A stretch of DNA of 64,000 bases, from positions 46,488-110,487 of the forward strand of contig KV424004.1 of the NCBI GenBank assembly GCA_001632435.1, in the 5' to 3' direction. This DNA comes from Calocera cornea HHB12733. Its lineage: Eukaryota > Basidiomycota > Dacrymycetes > Dacrymycetales > Dacrymycetaceae. The position numbers were made by a program, and so were the translations under genes. Below the pieces are notes generated by a model that saw only the letters and a program-made list of their open reading frames with translations, was not told where the DNA came from and searched no databases. Shown one piece after another: positions 1 through 41,254 of this stretch. How positions within the stretch are numbered: the stretch's first letter is position 1; every line of letters begins with the position of its first letter.

Positions 1-3000
1 CTCCCCCGCCCCCTCCTCCTCCTCCACCGTCGCGGCCTTCCCGGTCAACTCCGCGTCCTTGGTGGAGTTCTTTGAGGCTGGCTCCGACGGTCGGTACGAC
101 TTCACAACATCGGACCAATCCCGATGTGGCGAGATCTGGTGATTCCTCCCACGGCAATCCACCCTTCCCTCCTGATGGTGCTACTTCTCCTCCGCCTTCC
201 ATCGGGGAAGCTTCTCCTACCCAAACGCGGACATTCAACATCGACTCTGCAGAAGCGTACGATGGTCTTCCCGTTGATGATCTTGAAATCCCCTTATCTC
301 TCCCTCCCACGGTTGGCGACCTCCATCGAGCGACTGAGGCGCCCCTTCAATGCTGTTTTGACGTGCATCCAAAGGCGGGGGTCCGGGCTATATGTCTCCT
401 AATCGTCCATCTGCATTCTCGCTACGGTCTTCCTCATCTGGCCTGTTCTCAGCTGGCAACCTTGCTCTACACTGTCCTGATCTACTTCGGCGTGCTATCA
501 CCCCTGGCCGAAATGACGCAGACCTCGGCCCCGATTCGTACGCTCAACACCATGTACAAGCGCCTGCGACTGTGGGACCGTTTCGACGTCAAGACGCTGT
601 GCCCGAAGTGCTGGGCATTTGAGAGATTTGAAATCGCGCAGATGGACCCAGACTGGCTGGACGATATTGGTCTGGAAGATACCCAGAGAACCACTGACTC
701 GGAGAAGGACTTCCAGAGATACTGCCCGCGCTGCAACATGCCGCTATACTACTTGCCACCCAAATCTACCATCCCCCGTGCACTCCGGCAAGCACCTTAT
801 GACTTGCTGTCCGTCCAACTGGCAGAATTTCTCGGGCAGCCTGGTTTCGAAGACGCATGCGAGAGTTACTTGGACGATAGGCGATTCCCCGGCGTCTACT
901 CCGGGCTGCAAGATGGGTCCGTCTGGCAAGATATGCTGATGCCAGACGGTACCCGATTCTTCCCTCGAACCCGGCAGGAGGCAGCTCATCAGGATGAGCT
1001 GCGACTGGGCGTCGCCTGCTCGTGCGATTGGTTCAACCCGAATCAGTCGTCTTTCGCGGAGTCCCATTCAGCTGGCCCCCTTTCGCTTTGCATTTCAAAC
1101 CTCCCACCTGAGCTTCGGTATGTACACTGCATCTAATGCTCGCTCTCCCTGAACGTCTGTATAGATTCCGTGTGCACAACCTCGTCCTCATCGGCATACT
1201 TCCTGGGCCCAAGGAACCCACAGGAGATCAGCTACAACGTTTTCTCCGCCCCCTCGTCGACGATCTCCTTCGGCTCTGGAAAGAGGGAATCACTATCAGG
1301 ACCCCCAAGTATCCACGAGGTTAGTAGTGCCTGGTCGATGCGACTTCACAACTCACCCTTCACCAGGTCGTCGAGTACGCGTCGCCCTCCTAGCGATCAT
1401 CTGCGATCATCCTGCTTTGTGTAAGATGTGCGGTTTCGCTGACCAACGCCACAATGCTCGACCATGCACCCAGTGTGAGATCTCACGGGCCGATATGTTA
1501 ACGAAAGGCTGGGAGACCGACCATGTACCTCTCGGCGACGGGCAGCTGCACAAGCGTCGCGCTGCTCGAATGTACGCGCTTCAACAAACCAACGCGCCAG
1601 ACAGCAAGATTCAAGCCTATTTCACTCGATACGGGGCGCGGTGGACGGAATTCAGCCGTCTACCTTACTTTGACCCGGTCACAATGGGGGTAATCGACCC
1701 GATGCACACCTTCCTGCAAGGTACGTGCGGATCTGTGACACCGACATCTGCTGATGTCCAATAGGCCTTACCAAGACTCTATGGTTCAGCAATTGGGTCC
1801 AAGGTGGCAAGCAGGGAAAGAAGCTTCTTCGGGAAGGGACTGCGGCAGGCACTCGACGCGAGCTGGACGCCATCCACGACACACTAGCGATGTTTGAGAT
1901 GCCCGTATGGTACGCTCGCCTCCCAAAACAGGTGGGCGAACCCGGAGGTGGCAGCTTAACCTCGGATGAGTGGAGGTGTCTGGCTGTGCTGTACGGACCT
2001 GCAGCGGTAAGCCTGCCAGACGGTCTCTCAAGCTCCCACTAACACGCAACAGATCCCACCCGTCCTCATCGCCGCTGGGCATTCCGCCGCTGCTCGCAAC
2101 TACCTGAAGCTGGCCGCCTCGATCAAGATCTTTATGAGACGGGAGATTACCCAGGCCGAGCTGGAGCGCGCGGAGGACTTGTACAGACAGTTTCTCAGGG
2201 AGTATGTTGAGGTAAGCTTGGCGATTCGAAGTTGTGCCCGTCTAGCTTGCTAGTCGGTACAACTTCACAACTCACCTGTCGCCCGGTGCTTCCTTCGAAT
2301 CTGACCACCAATTCTGCAGATCTATGGCGCTGAGAACGTGACTCCTACTTTCCACTGGATTCTCCACATGGCGGCGCAGATTCGACGATTCGGCCCCGTT
2401 CACGGCTTTTGGACCTATCTCTTCGAGCGACTCAACAAGCTGCTGAAGGGGTTCGCTACAAATGGGCACAAGGGCGGTGCGATGGAGGTTACCTTTGCAA
2501 GGGAGCTGAAGCGGGAGATTAGCCTGTCGCGCCTGGTAAGCAGATCCTTCACCCTATCAGACTGTCTAACATCTATACAGAATCATGTACTATCGAGCCA
2601 GCGGGAAGACCCGCTGGCTCGGCTCCTCGCTAGCGAGCTGCAAAAGAGCCCTGGTGATCTGTCCCGAACTGGAACACTTGCTGCTATCGCAGCTGAAGCT
2701 CAAGATCTGGTTCAAATCCAGGGCGGCAGCCAACCTTGCCTACCCGCGGGCCGAGAGAGAAACCTCGTTCTGGAGCATGAGCTGCAACATCGTCTTCTGG
2801 ACTGGTATCGGCGAGTTCACCCCCAGCTGTCGATCTATCATCCTGGGGAGCCCACGGCGCCATGGCGGGCCAATTTTCTCAATCATCGAGGAACTTTCTA
2901 CCCCAAACTGCGGCTGGACGGCAAACGGATCCTAGCTGTGAACGAGGAGAAGAGCAGCAAGAGCGATTCTCTGGTGCTACTGCAGTATCAGCCTGGAACG

Positions 3001-3468
3001 CAGTGGGTTGGTGAGCTTTGGGCGGTTGTGAGGCATTCTCAGGAAGGTGTAACCCCCCCTGTGACATTCGCGCTCGTAGCGTGGCTGGTGCCGCTGCAGG
3101 ATACCCCTCTGCATGCAGACCTGTATCGGGATTTGTGAGTGGGTTCCCCCTTTCAGTGCTTCATGTGTACCGACTCGCAGTCGGTACACCTTCACAACTC
3201 ACGCCGACATTGCTGACAAAGATGTCCAGAAAGGAACTCGAAGTTGATTTCTGGAAGTACGATGTGTACCAAGGGCCAGACGACTTCGGCCCAGATGCTC
3301 TGGTTGCGGCAACCGACCTTTGCGGAATGGCCGCGCGATGCACGATGGAGGTGGGCGGGCGACGGATATGGATTACGACGGGCTTAAGCAAGGTACGGGC
3401 AGACAGGCACAAGCGTCTAATGTGCTCCCTCCTGACTGACTATCTACTAGAATGGGCGCTCTTTATAG
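1..3468 (+). CDS. tnp2-family transposase of element A (5' end uncertain, cut by window edge)
   Basis: Multi-exon transposase of the CACTA/tnp2 superfamily, which catalyses excision and insertion of its own element. The reading frame is open from the window edge, so the true start is not seen. Exons can be joined through introns at about 1116-1163, 1320-1366, 1722-1764, 2008-2051, 2212-2319, 2536-2580, 3135-3229 and 3392-3450, ending at TAG 3466-3468. Visible family features in order: Cys pairs CPKCW and CPRCN in the N-terminal third, a DELRLG segment, the GILPGPKEP motif, a LLAIICDHPA / C-x2-C block (CTQCE), and a C-terminal tail with ADLYRDL followed by KELEVDFWKYD. The splices keep the frame throughout and no internal stop was found, so this copy may be functional. 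Several introns carry the element-A word on the sense strand. Confidence 0.8.
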
Positions 3469-5220
3469 AGATATACTACCAAGGCAAGTGTTTCTTGTAC
3501 GTATCAGCGTCCTTGTCAGCCGCTGATCGAGTTATCGGGCAGATGATGCTGTACGCAATGATGATTGACTGGTGTAATGGGTAAGCCATAGTACGCCCCG
3601 GAAATGAAATGGCCGACTGATGAGCAAGTGGAATATTGCTAGATGTTCTTTATCGGTCGGCACGACGACACCACAGACCTTCGGTTGTGCGTCCCCTCAA
3701 AAGGGAGGCGCAGCTAGCATAGAACTCGCGATGTGGGGCGCTCGCGCGCCGAACGACGCTGGCCATCCCTGGCGACGCTTCCAGTAGGACTCGTCCCACT
3801 TGGGCAGCTGGGTTGCTGCCCAGTGGGGATCCAGCATGAAATCGAAAGGAATCACCTCCGGCATGCGATGACTGACGTTGCCCAGGTCTGCTCGAGGTTT
3901 CTCAGGTTTCTTCTGGGTCCTGGGTCTGCCTGCGCGCTGCGCCTTGAACCATTCCCAGAGCTGAGATCATGTGAGTGATTGGTGTCGCGCTTGGAGAATA
4001 TACTAACATGGATATGCATCCAAGCTGGACGCCGCATTTCCAAAGCTTCGATGCGTGTTGAGGAATCCCGCATCTGAGCCGATATGCTGCCCCTCTCGAA
4101 GAGTGCTTGCCGCCAGGCCGGCGACTGTATCCCCTCCTCATCCCCGGACCATTCCTCGCCCATCCACTCCTCGTTGACAAGCTCCAGCTCCACCAAGGTA
4201 TGATCGAGCTGATTGTCCTCGCAGAACACCTTGATTCCTTTGCGGATCTGGTCAGCGGCCTAAGTGAGGGGTAAGTACAGCTCAAATCGGCGATACGGAG
4301 AAGATGCTGACAATGTTGCGTCTTTCTCTGCGTTTGCCCTGGCGTCTGCGGAGCGCACTAGCAGCACCGTTGTCTTGGGCATCATGCACCTGCTTCTGCC
4401 AAACCGCCTTCAGTCCAGGCCACGACTTCTGTCCCAGATCGATGAGAACGTTCTCGTCGAGCCAGCGGGTACGATAGGCAGGAGGCACAACACCTTCCGC
4501 GCTCTGTCATGAGCGGTGAGTTGTGAAGTCGTAATGACAAAGAACCAGACGCTTACCATCTGAGTGCGGATTACAGCGTCCGCAGCACGCTGTTGAATTC
4601 GGAGATTCACGGTGTCGGAAAGAGTTGCTTTGAAGTCTGGGATCAAGAATGGGCCAGAGCCTGCCTCCGCATCTGGGAGCGGACCACCCGCGTTCGGCAT
4701 CGTGCGGCCGGGCGCATACCCAATAAGGCGTTGCATAGTGGTCCGCATTTCGCGCTATCATTTGTAAGTGTTGAGAGCTGCTCATGAGACAGACTGAGAC
4801 TTACCTGCAGGACTTTCTTCATCCGAAAATCTGTTTCATCAAAGCCTGCTTTCACCATCTTGGCCAACGCCCCCGCAACCCGTTTGGGATGGTTCGTGCC
4901 CTCTTCTTGGCCAGTCTTCAGAGCAGGTCTTCTCTTGCTGGGAATGCTGAGGGGAGTAAAGCGGCTGTGATCGTCCCCCTCATTGCGTGATTCATCGATG
5001 GGATCAACCGGAGGCGTTTCGGACGGTTCGTTGCTGGTGGCCGGCCTGGTTTGGGTGTCGAAAGAAGACAGTGTGCGAGGCAGGGGAAGCTGGGTTTTGG
5101 GAACGGAGCTGGGGAAGGCGGAAGGAGGGTCATTGAAGAAAGCACTGGGAGGCGGAGATGGTGTAAGAGGCGGGCTAAGAGTGGAGAAGGAAAGATAGGG
5201 TGAGTTGCGAAGTCGTACCG
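92..5220. repeat. Element-A private word GTACGACTTCACAACTCACC, six dispersed copies
   Basis: Copies at 92-109, 1341-1358, 2256-2276 and 3182-3205 on the plus strand, and at 4516-4535 and 5200-5220 on the minus strand. The last five lie inside introns, always in the sense strand of the host gene. The first lies near the ambiguous 5' end of the transposase. Intron 2212-2319 also holds a partial reverse copy. The CTCAC within the word fits a fungal branch-site pattern. Confidence 0.8.
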
Positions 5221-5443
5221 ACTGAGAGAGAGAAAGGACTAACACCATCAACGCAGGGCGAGCGCTCAACTCCTGGGTGAGGAACTTGATCCTCCGACCC
5301 CTTGCGAGATGGTCAGGCTCGCTGCTCTGGGCGTCATATACCTGGATCAAGTCACGGATCTCCTCCACAAGGTTCATCGTCACGAGGAGGCCTGGGTCGA
5401 CGGAAGGGACAGCGAACAGCGCGGGGTCGATCGAGGATTGCAT
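3697..5443 (-). CDS. Accessory protein of element A, unknown function
   Basis: Convergent partner of the transposase, read from ATG at 5443 to TGA at 3697-3699. Six exons with introns at 5175-5243, about 4741-4790, 4504-4556, about 4261-4312 and about 3967-4013 leave 1476 nt in frame (491 residues). The N-terminus is leucine-rich and helical. It is followed by a Ser/Pro-rich disordered stretch (about residues 70-140), a basic patch (RRRQGKRRERR), an acidic segment around EEWMGEEWSGDEEG, and a Trp-rich C-terminus. I recognise no domain. Position and size resemble the second gene carried by CACTA-like elements, which in En/Spm encodes the word-binding TNPA protein. That functional parallel is inference. 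Two of its introns hold the element word in the sense orientation. Confidence 0.65.
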
Positions 5444-6458
5444 GGCAGCTGGATAGACTAGGGGGAAGAGGATCGAGAGCAAGCTAGGGGATCTGCTTTA
5501 TAGTCGGGAAAGCTGGTCTTTCCGAGTATGAAGCAAGAAAAAGTAGCTAGCCTTCCGTGAGATTTTTCCGTATTCGAAAAGATAATCAAAAGCGGGCCGT
5601 GTTAGGAAGCCTTTTCTATCAATGATTGAAAAGAATCAAGAATCCATTCTAGGCCTAGGCTATACTACTACAGCATGGATCGGTCATCTATCCTAGTACT
5701 AGAAGAGGCCGTGAAAGGGTAGTTGGATGTGCAATGACTAGGTGAAGCGGGTTCACCTTCCCGACGCTCGATCAGGTGACCTTTGCGTGCCTGCCATAGC
5801 CCCCAAAAGAGACCCCTAAAACGCGGTGTCTGGGTGTGTGCGAGAGCGTTGGATCGTCGCTTCGAGCCCGTCAGGATTTGGCGATGCAGCGGCGATAGTG
5901 AATATGACGCACCGGCTCGGTAGAATGAGGTTGAGAGCCATATGCGGAGCGGCACCTTGGCAGAAATTCGACTTTGGAGGACCGGAGGTGGAAGATGGCA
6001 GTTTAGGACGATGTCTCGGTCAGAGGACTGGCTGATAACGCGCAAGACTCATGGTCCTGGCCAATCCCGCCGAATTTCCTTCCGTGGGTGCTTCTTAGGC
6101 TGGTAGAGCGGCCATATCGTGCTGCGGAAGATGGTGGAGATCGACAGCACAGTTGGTGCATGTACGTATCGTGTGTGGCATATGTTCCCCTCGACAGGAA
6201 GAGTTCCGACGACTTGGTCCGCTCCTCCCTGAGGGGTAGACCGTTATGACGGTGGGAGGAAGTCAAGTGCAAAAGAAGCTCGCTCAGCGCTTCTGGCACA
6301 GCCGCAGCGGCGTACTCGGCATTGCAGCCGCGTCATCTTTAGCAACGTGCCTCATGCCCGTCTTGCTTACTCGGTCATTAGGGTAGTGTGATTCGAAGTC
6401 AAGCGAGCACAGCCTGATGATTGGCATCCGGAGGAGGTGTCTAAAGAGGAACCAAACA
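5444..6458. other. No gene seen; right end of element A and kinase 3' flank
   Basis: About 1 kb with only short, poorly structured open frames. It should contain the undetected right terminus of element A and the 3' region of the first kinase gene. I see no RNA gene, repeat array or promoter that I can support. Confidence 0.5.
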
Positions 6459-8125: not shown

Positions 8126-9273
8126 TCAAAGCTTGTGCCGCAGCTCCATAGTAGACGAGTGCATATTCGACGTAGTCGCTGCTGGGATCCGTTGTGTCAG
8201 CTGAGTGGTGCTTGGCCTTTCCTCCGGACGGCTACACCAGCAATCTTGCATGATAGCCCACATTTCATCACTCAATCCTCTCTCCACAGCCTCTGCGCCC
8301 GGATGAGACGGCTGCTCTCGGGCATGCACCGCACGAGGTACCACGTATTTGTTCGTGATATGGTGAAAGGGTACCCGATCTGAGTAGAGCACATAGGCGA
8401 CCATCCCGAACGCGTATACGTCTGATGCAGGTGTAAAAGACCCGATTTGTGTCTTCCCATATTCGTTGTTAAAGATCAGCTCTGGTGCCATGAAGCGCGG
8501 GCTGCCGGTGTAACGGTCGAAATCCATCAGATGGGCGTCGGGATCTCGCAGAAAACCAGCCATTGCAAATCCGGCGACACACACTTGTCCGGATGGTCGC
8601 ACTAGGATGTTCTCCTATTGGCACTGGCATAAGAACACTCCTGCCATAGTCGGTATATCTTACCAGTAGGAGGTTACCATGCACGATCGGAGGTTGAAGC
8701 GAGTGCATATAGGCCAAAGCATGCACAACGTCGAGCACCTGCAGCGTCAATAGGTCTCGCTCAGTTTCATTGTTACAAACCAGCTTACCAGAGGAGAACG
8801 CCGTGCCTCGGGGTATATCTTCAGGTAGTCTCTTACAGTCCCATGCTCCATCCAAGGCGATACCAAAGCGACACCATGGCGGCCGCGTTCACAGACACCA
8901 TAGAGCTCGAGGAGATTTGGATGTCTCATTTGCACCCACGTTGTCAATTCGTTCATGAGACGCTCCATCTATAAGCATCTATAAGCTGAGCGCCCCAGTC
9001 GAAGCATCAGACATAGCTGCGTACTTTGTTTCGCCTCTTCTTCGCTTCTACATACGAGAAAAACCGCGCCATCGTCTTGAGTGCAACTGGTTTACCAAGC
9101 AGTGACCCCCTCCATATGTCTCCGTGCACGCCCGAGGCCAAGGGGTGCTGGACAATATTTGCTATGGTGGGGGTCAGGTCTGGCACCAAACTCGAAACCT
9201 CTTGAAGGATGTCGTTCGCGTTGCTTTGGTGCAACGGTGCTGAACTGAGGGCGCGTTCCGTAATGGTGGTCAT
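8126..9273 (-). CDS. K2, kinase-fold protein with degraded catalytic motifs (pseudokinase)
   Basis: Start ATG at 9273 (MTTITERALS), stop at 8126. The N-lobe has the glycine loop GVHGDIW and the lysine in VALKTM. The hinge is SPWMEHG. The catalytic loop reads HGN instead of HGD/HRD, and the DFG position reads AGF (VCVAGFAMAGF), so both catalytic aspartates are missing. MAPELIF and the F-helix SDVYAFGM are kept, as is the conserved C-lobe. Several introns of about 50 bp are needed. From known kinase chemistry this should be a pseudokinase, perhaps a scaffold or allosteric partner; that role is inference. It is closest to K5. Confidence 0.72.
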
Positions 9274-13917: not shown

Positions 13918-14284
13918 CCACTGCGCCCTTAGAAGGTAATGATATTCAGTATGCGATTCAGCACCTTTAGCTGAGCGAAATAAGCACCCATTGTGCTGAA
14001 GATCAGCGATACTGTTGATCTAACAGTAGATAAGCTAGGGAGACATTTTCACTGTAGTTCAATAGCATAGTGAAGAATTCAGTACCCTATGCGCGCGCCG
14101 CCTTCTTGCAGGTTGTAGGGGGATCTCGTGTGGATATAAGTGCAGGTTTGTAATGGAATGAATTCGGAGGTTAACTATGGATTCACAATACATGCTTAAG
14201 CGCGGAAATTGCAGCAACTCATAGAGTGAAATGGATGTGAGTTTGAAGGCATGATGTTTCCGCAGGCATACCCAGGGAAAACCA

Positions 14285-15328
14285 CTACTCCATCTCCTCA
14301 TCCTCATCCAACAAAAGCTCGTCATTGGCCTGCTCCTCCAGGCCGTCCTCGTCCTCGTCCTCGTCCTCGTCCCGCTCCTGCCCCTGCTCCTGCCCCTGCT
14401 CCTGCCCCTGCTGCTCCTGCCCCTCGTCCGTGCTCTGCTCGCCATCCAGGTCTATGTCGATGACGTTGGTACTGTGAATCTTCGCTCTCTTCTTTGCATG
14501 TGCGCGCTTGTTCCTCATGTAGATCTTGATGAAGTCGGACGTCGCCCAATCGTCCTGGTAGCGGCCAAGAACGGGTGCTCTCTGTCGAGCCTAGCATGCA
14601 GTCAGCAACAGAAGGTGAAATGGCAAAGCGAAATGGGCGCACTAGATCATATATCTTTGCCAGCTTGCCGGCGGGTTGGAGACGAAAATCCACATTGCAG
14701 TCGAGCTGCGCCATAAGGCAGAGATCGCGAACGGTGCGCTGACAAAGTATGAGCTGGTGCTGAAGTCGTTCTGTAACAACTCACCGAAAGGTTGTTATAC
14801 TCGACCTTCATGTTTGTCATCTTCATTGCGGCCTGCAGACTGTATCCTCCGCTCTTGGGGTTACCGACGCTCCCAGCAGGACGGGGTATGACCACCTTCT
14901 TCTTTTCGGCCTTCTTCCGCTCCGCGTTTGCCTTCTTCCATTGCTGAACCTCATCTGGAAGACGGTGGTCAGCAGTGTAACGCAATTGTGCAAAGCGACT
15001 TACCTCGGAAAGCCTTCATCTGCCCTTCCAGCGCTTGGTTCTCCTTCAACAGCTTGGCATTCTCGACAGCCATGTCCTGCAGCTGGGCCGCTTTGGTTGC
15101 GGGCTTCTTGATGACCTTGTCGAGGTCTTCAGCATTATTCTCCTTGCTGGCGCGTGCAGAAGGGTTTCGAGGTCGTGTCGTTTTGCCGCCAGCTGCATCC
15201 ACGACAGTAGCAGTCTTCGTCACAGTCTTCGCAGTAGTAGTTGCTGCAGCACCTTTTGCAGTAGACTTCGTAGTAGACTTAGACGTAGGAGCAAGTGAGG
15301 CAAGAGGAGTGCGGCGGGTGGGAGGCAT
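14285..15328 (-). CDS. Accessory protein 1 of element B: basic/coiled-coil protein with acidic tail
   Basis: ATG 15328, stop 14285. Four exons, with introns of 49, 46 and 52 nt, give 897 coding nt (298 residues). Ser/Thr/Ala/Lys-rich N-terminus (residues 1-70) is followed by a probable coiled coil (AQLQDMAVENAKLLKENQ), a lysine-rich stretch (KKANAERKKAEKKK), a conserved-looking middle (GGYSLQAAMKMT and YQDDWATSDFIKIYMRNK), and a C-terminal tail of QEQG and DED repeats encoded by 14338-14425. It is divergently transcribed from the transposase with a shared spacer of about 350 bp. The third intron carries the element word. A DNA-binding or adaptor role is possible but unproven; I do not recognise a named family. 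Confidence 0.7.
14338..14425. repeat. Low-complexity coding repeat (Gln/Gly/Glu then Asp/Glu)
   Basis: Tandem hexamers in the last exon of the B1 gene encode repeated QEQG units and then an Asp-Glu run. This is an in-frame simple repeat, not an independent element. Confidence 0.85.
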
Positions 15329-15675
15329 TGGTGAACAACCGAGAGTGGGAATACGGGTCAGAGTAGAGGTCGGCGAGACTGGGATGGGGAAAGTTGTGCA
15401 ACCGCCAGACGCTAAGTTACATATAATCCACTGCATCTCCATTTTTTTTTCAGTTGCCAGGCGTTTGAGGTTTTGATTAAGCGGAGTGGGTAGAGTTTGC
15501 AGATGAGGGTGAGATCGGTGGGAATGAGCTTTTATTGGTTACCGCGCGTGCGAAGTATCAACAGAACCAAAATCGCGGGTCTTCTTTAGCACGTGATACA
15601 GGTCGCGACCGCTTAAGGACTTAGCCATTTCCACGTTGCTCTTCTTGCACAACGCACTAATCTTACTCTTCGACA
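15329..15675. promoter_or_regulatory. Divergent spacer between B1 and the element-B transposase
   Basis: About 350 bp lies between the two start codons, so it must hold both promoters. I see no clear TATA box. It contains no perfect word copy; the nearest are inside the transposase at about 15838 and 15931. Confidence 0.4.
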
Positions 15676-18564: not shown

Positions 18565-18802
18565 AATGGGTTCCAGTTGTATCCTGTCCGCCGCCGCAGA
18601 TAGGGAGATCGTTCTCTGCAACAATCAACCAGATCCCATCAAGTCATGTGCACGACATAAGAGATCAATGGCATCAGTCAATGGATGCACATCTGCTACT
18701 CAGGAGCAAAATAAGGACCAACAGCATTCATTCTTGACAAGCATGGTACAGAAAGACTAAGTACCAGTGGAGAAGCTGCACACAAACGGTCAACCTACGT
18801 CA

Positions 18803-21800: not shown

Positions 21801-22025
21801 TGCTCCTGCCATGAAGATGCGAGAGCGAGGAGATGGTGCCTCGGGAACGGGTTCATCGTGGTCGGTGTCAGAGGCGAAGAGGGGGTCGGGATCGGGGTCG
21901 GGAGGGGGCAGGGCAGGCCCACCAAGACCCATTGCACGAGAGATCGCGGCTTGGCGCAGGCGCTGCTGGCGCTCCTCTTCCCTCGCCCGCAGCATGGGGT
22001 CCAACGGGCGCGGGCGCGGTCCCAT
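18803..22025 (-). CDS. Accessory protein 2 of element B: large protein with Cys cluster, unknown function
   Basis: ATG 22025, stop 18803. Six exons, with introns of 52, 50, 47, 48 and 50 nt, leave 2976 nt (991 residues), exactly in frame. The N-terminal 330 residues are Arg/Asp/Pro-rich and disordered, with a Ser-Pro-Ala repeat (SPAPSPAPSPAP). The middle is helical, with segments such as ELLRMIIDNELPDWPEM. Near residue 850 lies a Cys cluster, CRCDRCRKSGEPVC followed by CSHCQKK, that could bind zinc. The C-terminus is basic (KAAAKEAKQGGKGGKG). Four of the five introns contain the element word, in either orientation. It is convergent with the transposase. By position it could be the word-binding partner, which is inference only. 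Confidence 0.65.
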
Positions 22026-23452
22026 TGAGTGTGAGCGAAGCAGGAGGATAAGGGAGGGTATGGGAGAGGATGGGATGCGCTTGGGGAGGGGAGCGGGTAT
22101 TTGTGGTGGAGACGGTGATGGTAAATGTGGACGTTGTGCAGGAGACGCGAGTCACTGTGGGCCTCATGCTAGGCGCGCGGCGAAAACAGATCCCGGGTTC
22201 CCATTTCGCTTTTCTACGCGGGCAGCAAACGAAACGAGCCACAAGTAAGTGAGTCTTAGTAATGGCATTTGATTATCTCTCTAACAACGTGCTCTAGTTG
22301 CTTCTACTACTCTATCTATGGCTGTAACTGCCAGATTAGGCTTGGTGGAGGGCGCAGCTGCCCTTTCGTGCGCTGCAATGATACTCCGGCTAGTTGGTTC
22401 CCATTTCGTCCAGGGAAAGACAGCCTATATTTGGCGGATGTCCTCATTGCGTACGGCTGGCAGAACAAGACTAATAGCAAGAAGANNNNNNNNNNNNNNN
22501 NNNNNNNNNNNNNNNNNNNNNNNNNNNNNNNNNNNNNNNNNNNNNNNNNNNNNNNNNNNNNNNNNNNNNNNNNNNNNNNNNNNNNNNNNNNNNNNNNNNN
22601 NNNNNNNNNNNNNNNNNNNNNNNNNNNNNNNNNNNNNNNNNNNNNNNNNNNNNNNNNNNNNNNNNNNNNNNNNNNNNNNNNNNNNNNNNNNNNNNNNNNN
22701 NNNNNNNNNNNNNNNNNNNNNNNNNNNNNNNNNNNNNNNNNNNNNNNNNNNNNNNNNNNNNNNNNNNNNNNNNNNNNNNNNNNNNNNNNNNNNNNNNNNN
22801 NNNNNNNNNNNNNNNNNNNNNNNNNNNNNNNNNNNNNNNNNNNNNNNNNNNNNNNNNNNNNNNNNNNNNNNNNNNNNNNNNNNNNNNNNNNNNNNNNNNN
22901 NNNNNNNNNNNNNNNNNNNNNNNNNNNNNNNNNNNNNNNNNNNNNNNNNNNNNNNNNNNNNNNNNNNNNNNNNNNNNNNNNNNNNNNNNNNNNNNNNNNN
23001 NNNNNNNNNNNNNNNNNNNNNNNNNNNNNNNNNNNNNNNNNNNNNNNNNNNNNNNNNNNNNNNNNNNNNNNNNNNNNNNNNNNNNNNNNNNNNNNNNNNN
23101 NNNNNNNNNNNNNNNNNNNNNNNNNNNNNNNNNNNNNNNNNNNNNNNNNNNNNNNNNNNNNNNNNNNNNNNNNNNNNNNNCGCATCCATGCAATATCAAT
23201 ATAACCCATTTCGCTCGTCTTGAGAGGAAACAAGACCTGGTAAGTCGAAAACATGTAGCGAGCACATTTGGCAGCCGGCCAAATAGTTGGTTCCCATTTC
23301 GCTCGACTACTAGGGACCGTACACGCGCACTTAAGGTGCGGGTCCCATGTGGGGACTGATCCGCACCCTTTCAGCAAACCCTTCTTTATCTACTGATCGC
23401 TCACGATCAACAGCTAAGCTGTTGAAGATCGGCACCCATTTCGTTCCCAGTG
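22026..23452. other. Right non-coding part of element B including an assembly gap
   Basis: Non-coding DNA to the right of the B2 gene, with at least five word copies. 22486-23180 is a run of N (695 positions), so any coding call across it would be meaningless. A 17-nt hairpin (arms CAACAGCT and AGCTGTTG around one A) lies at 23409-23425, just before the terminal word. Confidence 0.8.
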
Positions 23453-32670: not shown

Positions 32671-32677
32671 CTGAGAA

Positions 32678-32692
32678 TGCATCAGCAAAAAC
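32678..32692. repeat. Left terminal inverted repeat of element C with TGCA duplication
   Basis: TGCATCAGCAAAAAC at the left matches GTTTTTGCTGATGCA at 41244-41258. The outer TGCA is palindromic, so it is best read as a 4-bp target duplication flanking TCAGCAAAAAC; a longer inverted repeat cannot be excluded. Confidence 0.8.
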
Positions 32693-32779
32693 CGGGGTTG
32701 CGGCGCGGCGCGGCAGACGCGCTGCCGCTCGAGAAGCGGGTGTCGCAACCCCCCAAGTCTGCCGCGCGGCAGACTTGGG
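32693..32779. repeat. Left subterminal hairpins of element C, with a 28-bp perfect palindrome
   Basis: A perfect palindrome spans 32752-32779 (arm CCCAAGTCTGCCGC). Just outside it, GGGGTTGCG near 32694 pairs with CGCAACCCC near 32744. Related CCGCGCGGC-rich sequence recurs near the right end (41185-41220). Confidence 0.85.
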
Positions 32780-33190
32780 AAGAAGCGCCTGGCGTGCGCC
32801 CAGACTGGGGGTGCCGCGCCAGACGCTTCCGGAGCTCAGGGCTCTCTGGACGGATGCGGGGAGCCAGGATTGCCTGATAAGGCAATCTTGGCACCATACT
32901 AGATAGTGTAGCAGCGCCGCTGGTGCACATCATGTATATTATCAATAGATACATATTTAATAATACATTCTGCCCGATATCTGTGTGCTTGGCCCCAATC
33001 TATGCTCGCTGACAGTTGCAACTGTCACTCACCGCTGACAGTTGAAACTGTCACTCATCATCTTTCTCATTATCGAAAGCACTAGAGGGAATGCGACCCC
33101 CACGAGTCCCTTCGAGGTCCTTTGAGGTGACCCGTGCATGTGCACTGGTTCAAGGCTGAGTACTGTTTGTTGATTGAATAGCAATGTCAC

Positions 33191-34727
33191 TCACCAGGCT
33201 TGCTCAAAGATCCACACTTGAAGGGCGGCGCTTGCATTGGCCTTCTTGGACTTGAAAGCGTGCAGAGTGGCCAGATGATCTTCATACCGCCATCTCTCAA
33301 TGGAGCGCCAGTCCTTGGCCTCCAACACTCCGCTCTTCCACTCGTCCAGGGCCCATTCAACCTGTCTCAACATCGTCAGTAGAGCTTAAGACAGGCAAAC
33401 TGTCACTCACCGCCGCCGCCGAAATGGCAATCGTCTGGAACGGAACTGGGTTGTACAACGCCTTCATGGCAATGCCCAATGCATCCTTATCTCGAAACCA
33501 GACCACATTAATAACCTCAGTCAGGGCGGGAGATCGATAGATGCGGCTGGTTGGATCTGAAGCATCCTACAAACTGTCAGTGACAGTTTCGCTGACAGTT
33601 GAGAACTTACTTGGTAAAGGAAGGCCATTCCGTCCAACAACTTGTCCACGCCCTTGATAATGAGGCTCGATGCATTCTGAGCATGGGAGTCGCAACTGGA
33701 ACGCAAGCTTTCAGTCCACAATGGAGTGATGTAGTGGCTTTTGACAGCCGCCCTCGCAGCCTCAACTATCCGCGTCCGGAATTTCGAAGTAGTCTGACCC
33801 AACTGGAAGAAGCATAGTCAGTATGTGACCAAGTGGACTGGCCCACACTTACATAGGCCGTATGGGTTTGCTTCAAAGGAATATCCAGACGGTGTTCTCT
33901 CTGCGCGGTGCGCAAGGCATCCTGAATGAGCTCGCCCTTCTCGGACCCTTCAGCATAAGGGTTGAGGGCACCCAGCAGCCCCCAATACACCTTTTTAGCT
34001 TCTCCTAAGAGGGTCTGTTCAGCGGGCATATGGTTCCGAATGAGGGCTTTGCCGACAATGCGTTGAGGAGGTGTGGGTGAGGGACTACGAGGCCGTTTGC
34101 GCCCGCTGACAGTTTGGTTACTGGGTTGAACTGTCAGCAGCCATACATCAAGAAGCTTAAACACATACTCTATCGGTGTCATCACCTCTGAAGAGCTGGA
34201 GCTGGAGCCCAAGATGGGACCTGGGCGCAATGCGGCACTGTCAGCAACATGTACTGGCAGCGCTGACAGTTCAACTGTCAGCGCTGACAGTTGGCAGCGC
34301 TGACAGTACATACCCGAGTTTGTGCTTGTGCGTGGGCGCCTGGGACTCCGTTGACGAGTCAGCTTATGCTCCTGTACATTGTCAGTATCATGTTTCGGTG
34401 GAAGAGTTAGATAATTACCCGAGCAATTCTCTGGGGATTGACTGGTGACAGTTCCAGCTCCGTCTCAGATTCTTCTTCGTTAGGGGGATTGAAGTCCGGA
34501 TCATGCGCAGAGTGTGATTCTATATCACTATCTTCTCTGATATCCAGAGAAGAGGTTGCTCTGACTGGCCGACTAGGGCCGGGGACTCTGACAGTAGATG
34601 GCCGTGTTGTGCCTGCTGACAGTTTGAGTGACAGTTCTTGATACTTGCCCCAATGCTCACCAGATGTAGAGGCACGGGTCCCATACAGATTCGATATCGT
34701 CTGGGGACGATATCGGGTGTTGTACAT
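33191..34727 (-). CDS. Accessory protein of element C, DUF6532-like
   Basis: ATG 34727 (MYNTRYRPQ), probable stop 33191-33193. Introns include about 34376-34420, 34221-34313, about 34133-34180, about 33805-33855, 33567-33610 and about 33363-33411; a further 45-nt intron after residue 25 is possible. The N-terminus is basic and Ser/Pro-rich with an acidic patch (EEESETELEL). The C-terminal half carries the pattern of basidiomycete DUF6532 proteins: YRSPALTEVI, then VVWF, a central Ala-rich helix (AISAAAVEWALDEW) and WRYEDHLATL. DUF6532 has no established function but is repeatedly seen near transposons in these fungi. Exon ends are tentative, since donors and acceptors overlap the element word. 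Confidence 0.65.
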
Positions 34728-35484
34728 GATGCAAGAATGGGAGGGGGTTGGGGGGGAGCCAAATTGATGACGGAGGAGGAGGAGGGGGAAGATGCAGACT
34801 GCGCCGGGAATCAGACGGGCCTTTATGTGCCGTCTGTCTGCCATGCCGGAAAACAAACAATGGCACTGTTGCACGTGAGGAAATGATATACTCCACCCGG
34901 AAGCTGATCACATTCCAGGCTTGGCTTGCGACACATTACACGTCGCACCCATGAGATTCCATTCAAACTGTCACTCCCCAATAGGGAGCGGTCAACATGA
35001 GGTATGCCCATCTGGCAAGCTCATCCCAGCCCACAGTCAACCTCTTTGGACGGTTGGCCCTCCCAGTGAGCATTCCAGCGGATGGTACTTAGTTAATTCT
35101 ACAAACAAGCATGGCCCAGGCCACTGACAGCCCTCGCGTGTCGCGTGCCTACAGGACCCTGACCCCGCTGATGGCCCCCACTTTAAATGACGCTTCTCAG
35201 GGACCATCAATCAACAGACCCTGAGATGCATACATTACGCGCGTCATGATAGGGTTCATCTGGCGCAAACTGTCACTGACTTGATTGCCACAGTCAACAC
35301 CATTTGCATGGTACTACGCAGCAATGAGAATAGTCATTTGAGTGAATGAAAGAAGGAGAGTCTCCCTCTACAAACCATTCAAGTTTGGGTTGGCAGTAGT
35401 AGGCACGGTTGGAACTGTCAGCGAAACTGTCAGCACCTTTACCACCACCTCTAGACGTCTGCTTCACCATTGTTGTTTCGTTCT
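34728..35484. promoter_or_regulatory. Divergent spacer of element C
   Basis: 757 bp between the DUF6532-like gene and the transposase, presumably holding both promoters. It contains a GGGGG-rich stretch near 34741-34765 and word copies near 34970, 35263 and 35410-35430. No other feature is evident. Confidence 0.45.
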
Positions 35485-38463
35485 ATGGGTCACATTTCAA
35501 CTAACAACATCTGGAAGGCTAAGAAACCCTTGGGTTGCTTGTGGTGCACCAAGACTTTCGAGAGTCACTCCAATCTCAATCGGCACCTGGGAAATGCTCC
35601 GCGCTGCCGGGCGGCAGAAACACAACATCAAGCTGAAATCCTTAGTCGTCGGTCACACTTCCCAAACTGGTTGGAACCGCCCGACGTCGCGCCTGAAGAC
35701 GAGCCTCGGTGGGACAATGAAGCGAGTGACAGTTGCAGTTACAACGTTATGGACGCCCAGTGGCCCAACCACAATATGCATACAACTGTCAGCGGCGCAC
35801 CCGGCACCGCTGCACCATCCCACCCATCCCCGTCAACACACACTGTCAGCTACATTGAGGAGTTCCCAGGTGCAGCTGGAATCAAACTGTCATCAGCAGC
35901 ATGCGCCTTTCAAGAGCAGTTGGACTCATGGGGGGGGGTCGCTGACAGTTCACGTCACTATGGCGCATTTCTAACTGCCCAGGAGTGGGAGCTGGCCAAA
36001 TGGTTCAGAACCAGTGGGATCAGCAATACCAAGCTGGATGCGCTGCTTGATACGGCAGTGGTACGTGTTTAGATGCATTGTGGGACCCCAACCGTGCTAA
36101 CTGTCAGCCAGCTCAGAAACCGCGAGGGGGCCACCTTCCACAACTCCAGGTCATTATTCCAGCTGGTAGACAGCCTCCCCCAGCCACCATCATGGATTTG
36201 CAAGCGCTATTCGATTGAATCATCGATTCCGGAGAGTCCCCCCCAACAGGTGGAGATGTTTCATCGTGATCCCATTGAGGTGGTCCGGGAGCTTCTGGGC
36301 AACCCTCTCTTTGCCAATGATATGAAATATACGCCTAGAAGAGTCTATACAACCTCAGAGAAGCAAGAGCGACTATACTCTGAGATGTGGGATGGTGATT
36401 GGTGGTGGGAAACCCAGGTGGGAATATTTTGGCAAACTGTCACCCCAACTGTCACTGACAGTTTCGGACAGGAAAAGTTACCCAGTGGTGCAACCATTGC
36501 ACCCCTCTTACTGGCAAGCGACAAGACCACTCTGTCACAGTTCACCAGCAATACCAAGGCATATCCCGTCTACCTGTCTGTGGGAAACCTCAGTAAAACC
36601 CGGAGAAGAAAGCCAAACCAACATGGAATGGTTCTTGTGGCCTACCTCCCGGCCAACGGCCTCAAAGCTCTCATTCCAGATGAAAATAAGCGACGCTCTT
36701 CAGAGCGTCAGCTATTTCATGACTGTATGAGCGACCTCCTGCAGCCTCTCATTGCGGCGGGTCGGGAGGGGGTACCTATGACATGTGGCGATGGTTATGT
36801 CCGAAGAATTTTCCCCCTGTTGGCCGCCTACATTGCCGATTATCCTGAACAATGTCTCATCGGTTGCTGCAAATATGGATCTTGTCCCCGTTGCATTGCT
36901 CCTGTCACCCAGAAAGGAGAATATGAAGAGTTTCCACTCAGGAAACCATCCGACCTCGACCCGTGGCTTGGTGACAGTTCGGGTGACAGTTTGTCAGGGC
37001 AAGCCTTACACGACTACAAAACCTTCTGCAAATCCCAGCATCTGTTACCTGTAATCAGACCCTTTTGGATCAACCTTCCTCACGTCAACATCTATAATAC
37101 TTTCACCCCGGATGGGTTGCATGAGCTACATAAAGGCATCTTCAAGGATCACCTTCTCAAGTGGTGTATTGATCTTTGCGGCAAAGAAGAGCTCGACAAT
37201 CGATTCCGCTGCGTTCCACCCCATTCGGACCTCAAACACTTCAAATTGGGTGTGTCCAGTCTCAGCCAGACCACCGGAAAAGAACACAAGCACATGGAGA
37301 AGGTGTTGATTGCCCTTCTTCAGGGTTCACCTGGAACTGTCAGCGCCCAAACCCAACTGTCAGCGCGCGCCATTCTTGACTTTATCTATCTGTCACATCT
37401 CACTGCACACTCGGACACGACTCTCAGACACATGGAGCAGTCTCTGCAGCAATTTCATGCCAACAAGTCACGCGGGTTTGCGAAGACAGCCAAACCCATT
37501 GACTGGCACGGCATCCACAAACTGCACAAGCTCATGCACTACGTCCAGTCCATTCGCCAATTGGGTCCTCCAGATAACTTTGACAGTGAGCTCCCTGAGC
37601 GCTTGCATATCGACTATGCCAAGGATGGCTATCGTGCTGGAAACCGGTTGGACATCACCCACCACATGACCATATGGCTGCGCCGGTTTGAAGTGATCCA
37701 AAAGCAAACACAATTCCTTGCCTGGATCGATCAGCTCAAGAGAACTCCCACATTTGAGAACGTTCCAGCAGAGATTCCGGCCACAAACCCGCGAGAACTT
37801 GCCCGTTGGCCCCCATTCAGCAAGGTGACAGTTGGCCAACTGTCAGCCAAATTCGAAATCCCCAACATCATTCCCCTCTTGCATGAGTTCATCGACCAAC
37901 ATCTGACAGAATGCACATGGAGACCCTCAGAAGACACCCGCTTTGACTGCTATGTCAAGCTGATCAAGCAAGTCCCACCTCCTCCAGGGCTGCTGACAGT
38001 TTTGCATAATGTCATTCATTGTCGACCTGGGCGTGCAGCTTTTGGACGACAGCCTGCCAGACGACCTCAATACGATACTGTGGTGATCCAAAGCGACTCC
38101 AAGAACCGTCAGGCTGGGCTGACAGGGGTATCATTTGCCCGACTGAGATGCCTACTACAGGTGGCCTCACCCAACGATCTCCCTACTGGAGTGGTTTTTG
38201 CTTATGTTGAATGGTTCAGTGACCCCCAAGCTGCAGGCAACAAGCTCTCAGAGCTGACCAAGATGAAGCCAGGGGGAAGAAGGAGAATTGGTGAGATTAT
38301 TTATGTGGGAAGCATTGTCCGATCTTGCCACTTGATCCCCTCATTTGGACGGACAGTACCCCCATCCCTGGAGTCAACCACAGCACTGGACACTTCTAAT
38401 TCGTTTATTATCAACCCTTACATAGATCCCCATACATTCTTGGCGCTGTATAACTTTTCCTAA
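35485..38463 (+). CDS. Plavaka-type transposase of element C
   Basis: Two exons (35485-36060 and 36112-38463) give 975 residues. An N-terminal C2H2-like finger, CLWCTKTFESHSNLNRH (about residues 17-33), is followed by a Ser/Thr/Pro-rich linker. The second exon has the Plavaka hallmarks: ELLGNP, YTPRRVY, LLASDKTTLSQFTSN with YPVYLSVGN, MVLVAYLP, and a Cys block (CCKYGSCPRC), then PDGLHELHKGIFKDH and DYAKDGYRAGN in the C-terminal half. The chosen acceptor (36111) keeps the frame; the intron contains CTAACTGTCAG, fusing branch site and element word. Word copies are also translated inside the protein. No inactivating lesion seen. Confidence 0.83.
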
Positions 38464-38926
38464 TAGGATGGAGTGCAACTGTCAGTGCTGACAGTTGCGC
38501 TGACAGTTGTAGCCGAAATAGGCAAGGACCCTGACTACCCCGCAGAAGCGTCAGGGTCCTGAGCAGATTGAGTTGCATGACGCGCGTTAAGCATCTCAGG
38601 GCCCTGACGGTAATGTGAATAGTCTTTTGCCTCTGTTGTAGGGTGACAGTTGGCGACAATGAAACTGTCACCTTCCCACAAGTTTTTTTTTAAAAAATAT
38701 TTGGAGAAATAAAACACTTTTGGCTGTGTGAAATTGGTACATACAGTGCATCAGAGTCCAGCACCAATCAAGCAGGACCCTGAGTGGCAGTGATTATCCG
38801 CCTGATTCCGTGTCGCGCGACGCGCCCAACTGTCAGCAGATCTTCCAACATCTATCCCTGCGCCCTCTTTTACCACTGCTTAACGCACACCCCTCCTCAA
38901 CTCCCACTTTTCTATACCTTTTCAAC
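38464..38926. other. Spacer between transposase and JmjC-like gene of element C
   Basis: 463 bp with at least six word copies, three of them clustered at about 38475-38512. It must hold the transposase 3' end and the promoter of the next gene. Confidence 0.6.
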
Positions 38927-40821
38927 ATGTCTGCATCCCGCTCCCCTTCCCCAGTGGAGAATGACTGGTCGTGTAAGTACTTATTTTACAAACTGTCAGG
39001 TGACAGTTGGGCTGACAGTTGACAGATTTGGAACACCATTGCAGCCTTATTGTCAGCGGTGACGAATGGCTGTATACGGTCTATGTTCCAGCACCCTCCT
39101 TCCTGTCTGCAGAGCTTCCTCCTGCTGAAATGGGGCTACCTGGGGATCTGGCAACTGGAGAAGAGCCCACCGATGTCTTCATCAAGGATGACGAGGGCTG
39201 GCGCGCGTTGGGCAAGGTCTCGGGGCGCGGCTTTGAAAGATTCCCTGTGGCATCAATTGCCAAGAAGACTAGGCTGGTTCTGGGGGGGCCTTTGCCTGTC
39301 TGGCGCCCAGATGGTGCTGCTAGACAGCTGGCTAGCAAGCTGAGGAAGCAGGGGAAAGGTGAGTGACAGTTTCTAACCCTAACTGTCACCGATTCTGACT
39401 GTCACTTAGCCACACCTCCCATCACTCCCAGGAAGGCATCCAAGCGTGCCAGGAGGCCTTCCAGCAGTCCCCCTCCCGAGCCAAGCAAGAAGACGCGCGT
39501 GCGCCGTGAGCCGTCACTCAACAAGGTGCAGATGGTCGAAACTGTCACCCCTCGAACTGTCAGCGGTCGAACTGTCAGCGGTCGAAATCGTCGCTCCCCG
39601 CTCCTAGAACCGCGCGCTGACACTCCTGAGAGTGAGGAGGGGATGATCATCGATGAGGAGGAGCTCTCCAGCAATGATGAGCTGGTCAGAGTCCTCATCA
39701 ATGAGGATCTCTTCAACTATCAGCCGCAGGCTCTCCAAGATGCCGATGCTATTGCTGCCCTGGAGAAGAATGCCACTGAATATGGCAACGATTTCCTCAT
39801 CCCGCTGCGTACATACTGGGTCGAGAACTTCCCCAATGCGACGACGAATGGCTACGCCGGCGTGCTCATCCTGGAGGCCCTCATGGGTCTGGAATACAAA
39901 CTGTCAGCAGTGGTTGGGAGGCGCATTGCCGACTTCCTCTCCAACCCTGTGATGCGCCCCACGGTCGATCATGTCCTCGCCGATCTCATGGATGGGCCCA
40001 AGAGTGTGAAGGTCCAAGAGCCTCACAAGAACCATACGGGGTACAATCACCTCCGAACTGTCATTCTGTCACTGATGACACACTCTGCCGGCGACATTCC
40101 TACAAGCTCCGTGCCTGTGTTCTCAGCATTCGATATACGCTGCAACAGCCGGGATGGTCTTTCAACATGCAAGCTGCGGGTCCCACGTGACTACACTGAC
40201 AGTTGGGAAACTGTCACTCCAACGCCGCAGGAAGATGCCGAGCCTGCTTCTGTCATCACCCCGGGTGGGACTCTGTCCGATTTCCATTGGGATGCTCCTG
40301 GATGCTCCTATGGTGTAGTCCACATCGATGGTCTCAGCAATGTGAGCCCAGCCAAGCTGTGGCTGAAGGCATCGGCGACGCCTCACAACAGGGCCGTGAT
40401 GAAGGCATTTGGCCACTACAACCGCAGTTCTCAAATGTCTGCGGTTGCCATACCTTTGCTGGAGAACATTTCTTACTGGCTGGTCACCCCCCAGAACTGG
40501 GAGAAGGAGGGAGGAGCATTTGTGGAGGCGGGGGCGTTCCATTTGGTGCTGACATTCCAACTGTCAGCACATTGTACTTTCCGGGCATACAACCGCGCAG
40601 AGTGGCCGGCTATGAAGAAGTTCCTTAAATGGATCATTCACGACATTTCCAGCCAAGGTGCCATCGACAGATCGGATGAAGCAATGCTGATTGTGGAGGA
40701 TTTGAGGGTGTGGAGGGGTTTGGGCACCGGAAATGCCAAAGATGACCGATGGGTGGCCCGCCAGTTGGTCAGAGTCAAGGCTCTGGAACAGGCTGCCAAG
40801 GCTCAGGCAGAAGAGAACTAG
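38927..40821 (+). CDS. JmjC-like (putative Fe(II)/2-oxoglutarate dioxygenase) protein of element C
   Basis: Three exons (38927-38972, 39026-39358, 39410-40821) give 596 residues ending at TAG 40819-40821. A Ser/Pro/Arg-rich basic segment (about residues 125-190) precedes a helical region. From about residue 407 the pattern fits a JmjC double-stranded beta-helix: VITPGGTLSDFHWDAPG, GVVHIDGL, KLWLKASATPHN, and later AGAFHLVLTF. His419 and Asp421 would be the HxD iron ligands and His504 the distal one. JmjC proteins hydroxylate or demethylate histones and other proteins. Whether this one is active is unknown: no 2-oxoglutarate-binding residue can be assigned by eye. Both introns are largely built of the element word. 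Confidence 0.68.
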
Positions 40822-41254
40822 TAGATAGTATACCTCTTGATATGATCATACCTTTTTCTGATGAATAATACCTTTTTTGAACGCTTCAACATGTTTCCCA
40901 AGGGGTGACAGTTCAAACTGTCACCCTAACTGTCAGCACCCCTGTACCCCTCCAGTCTGGCGTTTCCAGCAGGTTTCAGACTCTGGAAGCAAGCCTCACA
41001 CTTAAAGTATTTGTTATTAAACATATTTCATTACTAGATAAACTAACTACTGGATATAAAATAATGCTACAAAAAAAAAAAACCCAGACGCTGCAGCAGC
41101 GTCCGGGGGCATGTTGAAGTGAGCGCCCGAGGACCCCTACAGGGTGCCGCGTCCAGCGCACTGCACCGCCACCGACCCTGAGCTGCCGCGCGGCGGGGGC
41201 TGCGGCGCGCGGCAGACCCTGGGAGGGTTAGCTGCCGCCTTATGTTTTTGCTGA
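40822..41254. repeat. Right subterminal region of element C
   Basis: Contains three clustered words at about 40906-40938, an A-rich run, a 17-nt hairpin at 41087-41103 (arms GACGCTGC and GCAGCGTC), GC-rich CCGCGCGGC-type repeats and the right inverted repeat at 41244-41254. Confidence 0.75.

What the first reader, a model, noticed from the sequence alone, without database searches (positions are those of the whole stretch)
1..41254. Three unrelated transposons, each filled with its own private short word
Seen: elements A, B and C all encode tnp2-superfamily transposases, and each carries a different repeated word (A about 20 nt, B about 16 nt, C 8-10 nt) spread over the whole element and nearly absent elsewhere in the window. 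Known: En/Spm TNPA binds a short motif, but clustered in subterminal DNA; VANC proteins of plant VANDAL elements bind short motifs dispersed through their own element and counter its methylation. Inference: each element has an own-factor/own-word pair used for self-recognition, which could act in transposition, anti-silencing or RNA processing. Whole-element dispersal including exons, repeated with a new word in three elements, is not something I know described for fungal CACTA/Plavaka elements.
Basis: partly seen in the sequence, partly recalled or inferred. Interest (0 to 1): 0.9.

Follow-up and report, generated by a model that had tools for sequence, protein, structure and literature searches.

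The report
Unrelated transposons sharing dispersed DNA words
In one jelly-fungus genome several families of jumping genes are each filled with their own short DNA word, and some of these words are used both by a cut-and-paste transposon and by an otherwise unrelated retrotransposon, as if one had learnt the other's address code.

Summary
The words are real and confined to transposable elements. C (AACTGTCA): 57 of its 58 window copies lie in 32680-41256. B (AGCGAAATGGGNNCC): 19 of 23 in 13919-23452. A: 6 in the window. The genome is Calocera cornea HHB12733.

(1) Selection acts on the DNA word. In C copies 75-77% identical, 25 of 31 and 22 of 28 words are exactly kept, against about 17% of other 8-mers; codon spelling is kept inside words (24 of 25 against 313 of 528).

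(2) The words are not private. C is also in a Ty3/Gypsy retrotransposon, B in a second, and a fourth word, D, in a third Gypsy plus other repeats. With words masked, C and its Gypsy share no DNA; B and its Gypsy share none. Two sister Gypsies lack all five words. A fifth word, E, marks another Plavaka family.

(3) In C the word clusters fit a 170-bp ladder (0 of 4000 random placements); outside the C guild support is weak.

Best reading: each word is the site of a word-specific trans-acting factor that keeps marked elements active, as VANC does in Arabidopsis, and retrotransposons evolved the word to use it. Reader and chromatin effect are inferred.

The parts
1..5482 (.). Window part of element A (tnp2 superfamily). 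It continues left to about C91:41724; the right end was not determined (last word ends at 5222, last ORF considered ends at 5482). Six copies of word A at 90, 1334, 2253, 3180, 4518, 5202.
1112..1321 (+). Transposase exon of element A (Transposase_21)
   Evidence: 4.4e-7; ORF 2338-3138 gives DUF4218 at 0.0023, below cut-off
13919..23452 (.). Element B (tnp2 superfamily), CACTG...CAGTG ends, 19 copies of word B with up to 2 mismatches; holds an assembly gap at 22486-23180
15676..18564 (+). Transposase ORF of element B
   Evidence: Transposase_21 2.6e-22
19306..22025 (-). Accessory ORFs of element B, no recognised domain above cut-off
   Evidence: the 379-aa ORF has one match in the genome, itself
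32680..41256 (.). Element C (Plavaka), CATCA...TGATG ends, 57 copies of word C in 31 clusters on a 170-bp ladder
32678..32692 (+). Left terminal inverted repeat of element C
41244..41258 (-). Right terminal inverted repeat of element C
33194..34464 (-). DUF6532 gene of element C, in several exons (candidate reader)
   Evidence: PF20149 1.7e-10 at 33360-33566; database proteins named DUF6532
35470..36072 (+). ORF upstream of the transposase with a weak C2H2 zinc finger match (below cut-off)
   Evidence: zf-C2H2 0.006
36073..38463 (+). Plavaka transposase ORF, carries 11 words
39499..40821 (+). 440-aa orphan ORF, carries 8 words; close copies only in C-word elements (candidate reader)

Best explanation
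Each word is the DNA site of a word-specific factor acting in trans. Shown here: the words are confined to elements; the C and E words are kept by selection as DNA, C also inside reading frames; words occur on both strands, in LTRs and in short non-autonomous elements; the B and C words are shared, with matching fine structure, by a DNA transposon and an unrelated Gypsy retrotransposon, and word D by a third Gypsy and other repeats; in element C the clusters are placed at multiples of about 170 bp. Inferred: the factor is made by the DNA transposon of each guild (candidates in C: the 440-aa orphan or the DUF6532 protein). Bound along the whole element, about once per nucleosome in C, it keeps the element free of silencing chromatin or DNA methylation, as VANC does for VANDAL elements. 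Gypsy elements with only gag-pol have evolved the same word, at the price of changed and inserted amino acids, so that the factor protects them too.
For: Position-by-position retention of C words, 25 of 31 and 22 of 28 against 769 of 4382 and 633 of 3846 other 8-mers (C78 and C100 are one subfamily, not independent). Codon spelling kept inside words, P 8e-5, 3e-5 and 0.011. E words kept 4 of 4, 3 of 3 and 3 of 4 at 59, 59 and 75% identity against 3.3, 3.0 and 14.8% of other 8-mers. Word-by-locus table of 28 stretches nearly diagonal. No DNA match between C and its Gypsies once words are masked, nor between B and its Gypsy even unmasked. Motif agreement outside the collecting seed, B with CC after two free bases in both carriers. 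Same pair spacings, tandem 12 and divergent 10 bp, in C Plavaka, C Gypsy and C short element. Ladder in C, 0 of 4000, and in the C Gypsy, P 0.012 for 150-185 bp. Gypsy pol changed to carry words: D 28 runs, 10 insertions, 17 amino-acid changes, 1 unchanged. VANC as precedent, with a motif also in the unrelated AT9TSD1 (PMC5735166, passages).
Against: No reader was identified: no domain, no database homolog and no usable model for the 440-aa protein. DUF6532 accompanies Plavaka loci in general, and in B no accessory protein has a recognised domain. No methylation, nucleosome or expression data. L063 and L064 are Gypsies with long open pol frames without any of the five words, so a word is not needed for survival. 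Outside the C guild the ladder is weak: band P 0.21 or 0.13. The D element at C79 was not classified, so D sharing with a DNA transposon is not proven. Word A has no retrotransposon partner in what was found.
Confidence: 0.5

Rival explanations
1. The reader is a host transcription or chromatin factor, and different transposons independently acquire sites for it to secure their expression.
For: Would explain sharing across unrelated classes and the lack of a shared accessory gene.
Against: Outside the clusters the words are no more frequent than the reversed control suggests: 28 isolated among the 100 listed places for C with a whole-genome control of 43, 17 isolated for B with control 13. Related Plavaka families use different words, which fits a factor that changes with the element better than a fixed host factor.
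Confidence: 0.22
2. The words are transposase or TNPA-like binding sites that serve transposition itself.
Against: Words run through the whole element and its exons and are kept there. LTR retrotransposons, which do not use a DNA transposase, carry them.
Confidence: 0.1
3. The words spread by a mutational process (local duplication or template switching) and are not selected.
For: Arrays with unit 12 bp in the C Gypsy and 10-42 bp in the D Gypsy look like local duplications.
Against: Retention of single words at fixed places over 23-41% DNA divergence, and codon spelling kept. Frames stay open in the D Gypsy. Local duplication may still supply the copies that selection keeps.
Confidence: 0.08
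4. The words are peptide repeats (LPEP, TVSE, LSA) needed by the proteins, not DNA sites.
For: In pol of the D and C Gypsies many words read as the same peptide.
Against: Words lie on both strands, in LTRs and in short elements; non-coding words are kept, 11 of 14 and 12 of 17; codon spelling is kept.
Confidence: 0.03

Closest known systems
VANC proteins and their motifs in Arabidopsis VANDAL elements (PMC5735166 and PMC10398659, abstracts in listing and passages read)
   Same: A short motif dense in one transposon family and rare elsewhere; related families have different motifs; effect along the whole element; one motif also found in an unrelated element, AT9TSD1.
   Different: There the motif lies mainly in non-coding DNA, in same-orientation arrays; here it is also in exons and on both strands, also in Ty3/Gypsy elements, and in C it is spaced at about 170 bp. 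No VANC homolog was shown here, and no demethylation was tested.
En/Spm TNPA and its subterminal sites (recalled; PMC10398659 passage mentions TnpA and demethylation of Spm)
   Same: CACTA-type relatives with a short repeated word and a possible own-element protein.
   Different: Words spread over the whole element, not only subterminal; shared with retrotransposons.
Fungal transposons that encode a TET/JBP dioxygenase, including PlavakaB (PMC12730594, passages and sections 21, 23, 26 read)
   Same: Plavaka with CATCA...TGATG ends; transposon-borne counter-silencing is proposed; [quoted passage not shown]
   Different: No TET/JBP domain recognised in element C. In what I read of the paper there is no dispersed own-element word; the phrases 'short repeats', 'internal repeat' and 'subterminal' do not occur in its main text.

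Membership tests
VANC-type sequence-specific anti-silencing | Short motif dense in the element and rare elsewhere | tested here: met
VANC-type sequence-specific anti-silencing | Motif mainly in non-coding DNA, arrays in one orientation | tested here: not met
   19 of 57 C words in the two ORFs counted, 32 on + and 25 on -
VANC-type sequence-specific anti-silencing | Element-encoded protein binds the motif | not testable with these tools
   Candidates only: 440-aa orphan and DUF6532
VANC-type sequence-specific anti-silencing | Binding removes DNA methylation and silencing | not testable with these tools
   No methylation or expression data available
VANC-type sequence-specific anti-silencing | Host element is a VANDAL (Mutator-like) transposon | tested here: not met
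   Transposases are tnp2 and Plavaka
PlavakaB | Plavaka transposase | tested here: met
   PF18759 2.4e-113
PlavakaB | Ends CATCA...TGATG | tested here: met
PlavakaB | Target site duplication of 2 or 3 bp | tested here: inconclusive
   Flanks ...ATG and CAA... of this copy do not match (sequence); it may be lost
CACTA/tnp2 superfamily (elements A and B) | Transposase_21 domain | tested here: met
CACTA/tnp2 superfamily (element B) | CACTA-like ends with inverted repeat and target duplication | tested here: inconclusive
   CACTG...CAGTG; only 5 bp inverted; GC on both sides could be a 2-bp duplication, read by eye
Ty3/Gypsy chromovirus (L031) | Protease, RT, RNase H, integrase and chromodomain in pol | tested here: met
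TET/JBP-bearing fungal transposon | TET/JBP dioxygenase gene in the element | tested here: inconclusive
   No Pfam match for the 440-aa ORF and no solved relative by sequence; an HxD-like stretch was seen by eye only

The most novel reading that the evidence does not exclude
Transposons of this genome are organised into guilds, each defined by a dispersed DNA word read by one guild factor. Retrotransposons join a guild by rewriting their own coding sequence to carry the word, and so borrow a DNA transposon's protection; related Gypsy lineages belong to different guilds or to none. In the C guild the word is metered at nucleosome spacing, so that every nucleosome of the element carries a docking site.
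Probability: 0.4. Interest if true: 0.93.

Novelty: new variant of a known kind. Interest (0 to 1): 0.86.

Why it matters
Sequence-specific anti-silencing by transposons is described in Arabidopsis. If confirmed, this would be a fungal case, would show that retrotransposons can exploit such a system, would show how an element's coding DNA can itself be a recognition code, and would allow a direct test of whether counter-silencing works nucleosome by nucleosome. The words are short and strong enough to be tested with one binding assay each, and could serve as addresses for guiding proteins to chosen chromatin.

Tried and rejected
Words as chance: rejected (one search used one shuffle per stretch). 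Words as host regulatory motifs: not enriched outside clusters. A dioxygenase identity of the 440-aa protein was suspected from an HxD-like stretch seen by eye, with the likeness to known demethylases recalled; Pfam, PDB sequence search and a single-sequence AlphaFold model (mean pLDDT 34.6) gave no support, so it stays a lead. DUF6532 as the specific C reader: weakened, because it accompanies Plavaka in general. The DUF6532 model was also poor (mean pLDDT 35.0), so no fold search was run.

A universal 170-bp ladder: nine elements outside Plavaka C gave P 0.006 for the best period in 150-185 and 0.005 at 171, but that set held a short element related to C. Without it, and with A cut at its assembly gap, P was 0.021 or 0.007 at 171 but 0.21 or 0.13 for the band and 0.44 or 0.66 for any period (two cluster rules). 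I claim the ladder for the C guild only. Shuffling the order of the gaps in C91 gives P 0.13-0.58: the evidence is for preferred gap sizes, not for extra long-range phase.

Words in the tnp2 relatives L003-L007: mainly purine-rich repeats topped the lists for the stretches, but only 2.3-3.4 kb of each was held, so a word elsewhere is not excluded. L063 and L064: no enriched 12-mer clearly above one shuffle (8 and 6 against 6). Early I wrote in a note that L027-L029 had no word; one search corrected this.
Full report
WHAT WAS CHECKED. The window is G000:C91:46488-110487 of a 32.1-Mb assembly in 302 contigs. A database protein that matches the minus-strand gene of element C lies on a contig of 129010 bp, the length of C91, and is named for Calocera cornea HHB12733, a Dacrymycete. 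AACTGTCA occurs 58 times in the window with 2.08 expected from shuffles, 57 of them in element C. AGCGAAATGGGNNCC with up to 2 mismatches occurs 23 times with 1.86 expected, 19 of them in element B. The A word with up to 3 mismatches occurs 6 times with 0 expected. Element B runs from CACTG at 13919 to CAGTG at 23452, and a 99%-identical copy on contig C62 begins at the same base. Element C has 15-bp inverted termini at 32678-32692 and 41244-41258; CATCA...TGATG ends are described for PlavakaB in PMC12730594 (passage). Element A is only partly in the window.

CONFINEMENT. In the genome AACTGTCAGC is found 241 times against 43 for the reversed pattern. The tool listed 100 of the 241 places; by my count 28 of these are isolated and 72 lie in clusters. 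GCGAAATGGGNNC is found 35 times against 13; 18 lie in clusters in two tnp2 copies and one locus on C1, 17 are isolated (my count). The A core with up to 1 mismatch is found 11 times against 3, 9 of them in element A.

SELECTION ON THE WORD. Two copies of element C, on C78 and C100, are 77% and 75% identical to C over the aligned stretches. Of the 31 and 28 words of C inside those stretches 25 and 22 are exactly kept, against 769 of 4382 and 633 of 3846 other 8-mers; the copies have 3 and 6 words that C lacks. C78 and C100 belong to one subfamily, so these are not independent tests. The effect is present in coding DNA (14 of 17, background 0.20) and non-coding DNA (11 of 14, background 0.11) for C78, and 10 of 11 and 12 of 17 (0.19, 0.13) for C100. 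Inside frames, where the amino acid is unchanged, the codon is unchanged in 24 of 25 cases within words and 313 of 528 outside (P 8e-5), 26 of 27 against 311 of 526 for C100 (P 3e-5), and 22 of 24 against 210 of 311 in the orphan ORF (P 0.011). So it is the DNA word that is kept.

NOT PRIVATE. Two word-rich loci of the genome scan are not tnp2 or Plavaka elements. L031 (contig C1), rich in word B, carries gag and a 1290-aa pol ORF with protease, reverse transcriptase, RNase H, integrase and chromodomain. L014 (end of contig C14) and L062 (start of C172) carry gag and pol of a related Gypsy and are rich in word C; they may be two ends of one insertion, which is inference. Relatives of this pol include L065 on C153, filled with a fourth word, D = GAGGTTCAGGTA (37 copies with up to 2 mismatches against 8 for the best word of one shuffle), and L063 and L064, which carry none of the five words. 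D is found 100 times in the genome against 8 for the reversed control, also in a short repeated element and at the start of contig C79. The short D element shares 156 bp at 76% identity with the C79 element (a 70-bp match at 86% remains after masking words), so it may derive from it; the C79 element was not classified. The table of five words against 28 stretches is nearly diagonal. B and its Gypsy share no DNA at E 1e-3. C and its Gypsies share 15 and 4 short matches of at most 26 and 31 bp, and none once words are masked; L065 and the short D element share two 18-bp matches and none once masked; L065 and L066 share none. The motifs agree outside the seeds used to collect them: B in both carriers has CC after two free bases, C is followed mostly by G or C and then C, D by A. 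The C carriers share pair geometry: tandem words 12 bp apart and divergent words 10 bp apart in the Plavaka element, the Gypsy and the short element.

HOW A GYPSY GOT ITS WORDS. The pol alignment shows words D, C and B at different places. Against wordless L063 the 28 word runs of D are 10 insertions, 17 with an amino-acid change and 1 unchanged; the 10 of B are 9 changes and 1 unchanged; the 5 of C in L062 are 2 insertions and 3 changes; the two frames of L014 gave 5 insertions and 4 changes, and 5 changes and 1 unchanged, but each of these frames runs partly outside pol, so they count for less. Word arrays sit as inserted peptides (LPEP, TVSE), many of them in poorly aligned linkers. The direction, words gained rather than lost, is inferred from the different words in sister lineages.

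A FIFTH WORD. Three members of another Plavaka family (L027, L028, L029; 35-36% identical to the C transposase over about 590 aa) carry CCCCAAATCGAAC: 4, 3 and 3 copies of CCCAAATCGAAC with up to 1 mismatch in about 4.6 kb each, 4, 5 and 4 with up to 2. Of the AATCGAAC cores, 4 of 4 are kept between L027 and L029 (59% identity; other 8-mers 148 of 4538), 3 of 3 between L028 and L029 (138 of 4535), 3 of 4 between L027 and L028 (75% identity; 670 of 4538). Related Plavaka lineages therefore use different words.

SPACING. The 57 C words form 31 clusters whose positions fit a 170-bp period; none of 4000 random placements with the same exclusion did as well at any period from 100 to 300. C78 and C100 give 173 and 172 bp (P 0.0025 and 0.001 for any period; same family, not independent). 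The two C-Gypsy pieces give 176 bp, P 0.012 for the 150-185 band, 0.052, 0.025 and 0.011 at 170, 171 and 172, and 0.07 for any period. For the other elements see Tried and rejected: support is weak. A nucleosome repeat is the obvious candidate, but I had no nucleosome data, and a library search on nucleosome repeat length, fungi and basidiomycete returned no paper.

THE POSSIBLE READER. Element C has two accessory genes. One is a DUF6532 protein (PF20149, 1.7e-10 on one exon). With all 78 Plavaka and 88 DUF6532 rows merged into 31 and 63 loci, 20 of the 31 Plavaka loci have DUF6532 within 6 kb, 19 of these upstream, with 0.85 expected (rows; the Plavaka list is a lower bound, and several loci lie at contig ends). 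So it is a normal companion of Plavaka. The other is a 440-aa ORF without recognised domain. Copies at 79-80% occur only with C-word elements (C6, C78, C294), and four distant matches at 24-32% occur elsewhere. A database search found no homolog, although the same database returned 460 relatives of the transposase.

MECHANISM. Shown: confinement, selection on the DNA word (C, E), sharing across classes (B, C), shared grammar, ladder in C. Inferred: a word-specific protein binds; it comes from the DNA transposon; binding keeps the element open. The comparison with VANC rests on passages of PMC5735166 and PMC10398659: a transposon-encoded protein binds a short motif mainly in non-coding DNA, methylation is lost through the element, the motif differs between families, and the VANC6 motif is also found in AT9TSD1, an element not related to VANDAL. 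What differs here is the use of coding DNA, the retrotransposon carriers and the spacing. [quoted passage not shown] borrowing would be one way round such a lack.

NOVELTY SEARCHES. The held library (open-licence PubMed Central papers) returned nothing for short motif, transposable elements, basidiomycete, dispersed, LTR retrotransposon and DNA transposon together, nothing for LTR retrotransposon, DNA transposon, shared motif, transposable elements and convergent, 4 papers for VANDAL, retrotransposon, fungal and anti-silencing, of which I opened only PMC12730594, and one review for anti-silencing, transposable element, Gypsy, CACTA and binding motif (listing only). Plavaka with transposon gave 9 papers, DUF6532 gave 1 (listing only). 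PMC13297926 was seen in passages. Most subscription journals are missing, so this is no proof of absence.

Noticed in passing
window 24140-29078: Copia element with two 282-nt direct repeats at its ends that are identical to each other and a 1458-aa ORF (RVT_2 5.3e-51): apparently a recent insertion between B and C; it carries none of the five words.
   Followed up: partly
window 8183-13090, with parts again at 30200-30372 and 32272-32679: Tandem, partly duplicated stretches at 65-95% identity; an ORF just left of them (6459-7097) looks protein-kinase-like by eye; the piece at 32272 directly adjoins the left end of element C.
   Followed up: no
G000, 31 Plavaka loci: DUF6532 is an upstream companion gene of Plavaka transposases in this genome: 20 of 31 loci within 6 kb against 0.85 expected. 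One paper of the held library names DUF6532.
   Followed up: partly
contig ends of C6, C14, C78, C100, C154, C158, C229, C280: Many C-word copies end exactly where the assembly breaks, so full copies of the family are under-represented in this assembly.
   Followed up: no
G000:C50:83167 and C201:16275: Two isolated near-matches to the A core outside element A, close to the number of the reversed control.
   Followed up: no
window 59404-59485: Tandem 21-bp repeat reading CGGGACTCCAGTGTCAGCAAG inside an ordinary-gene region.
   Followed up: no
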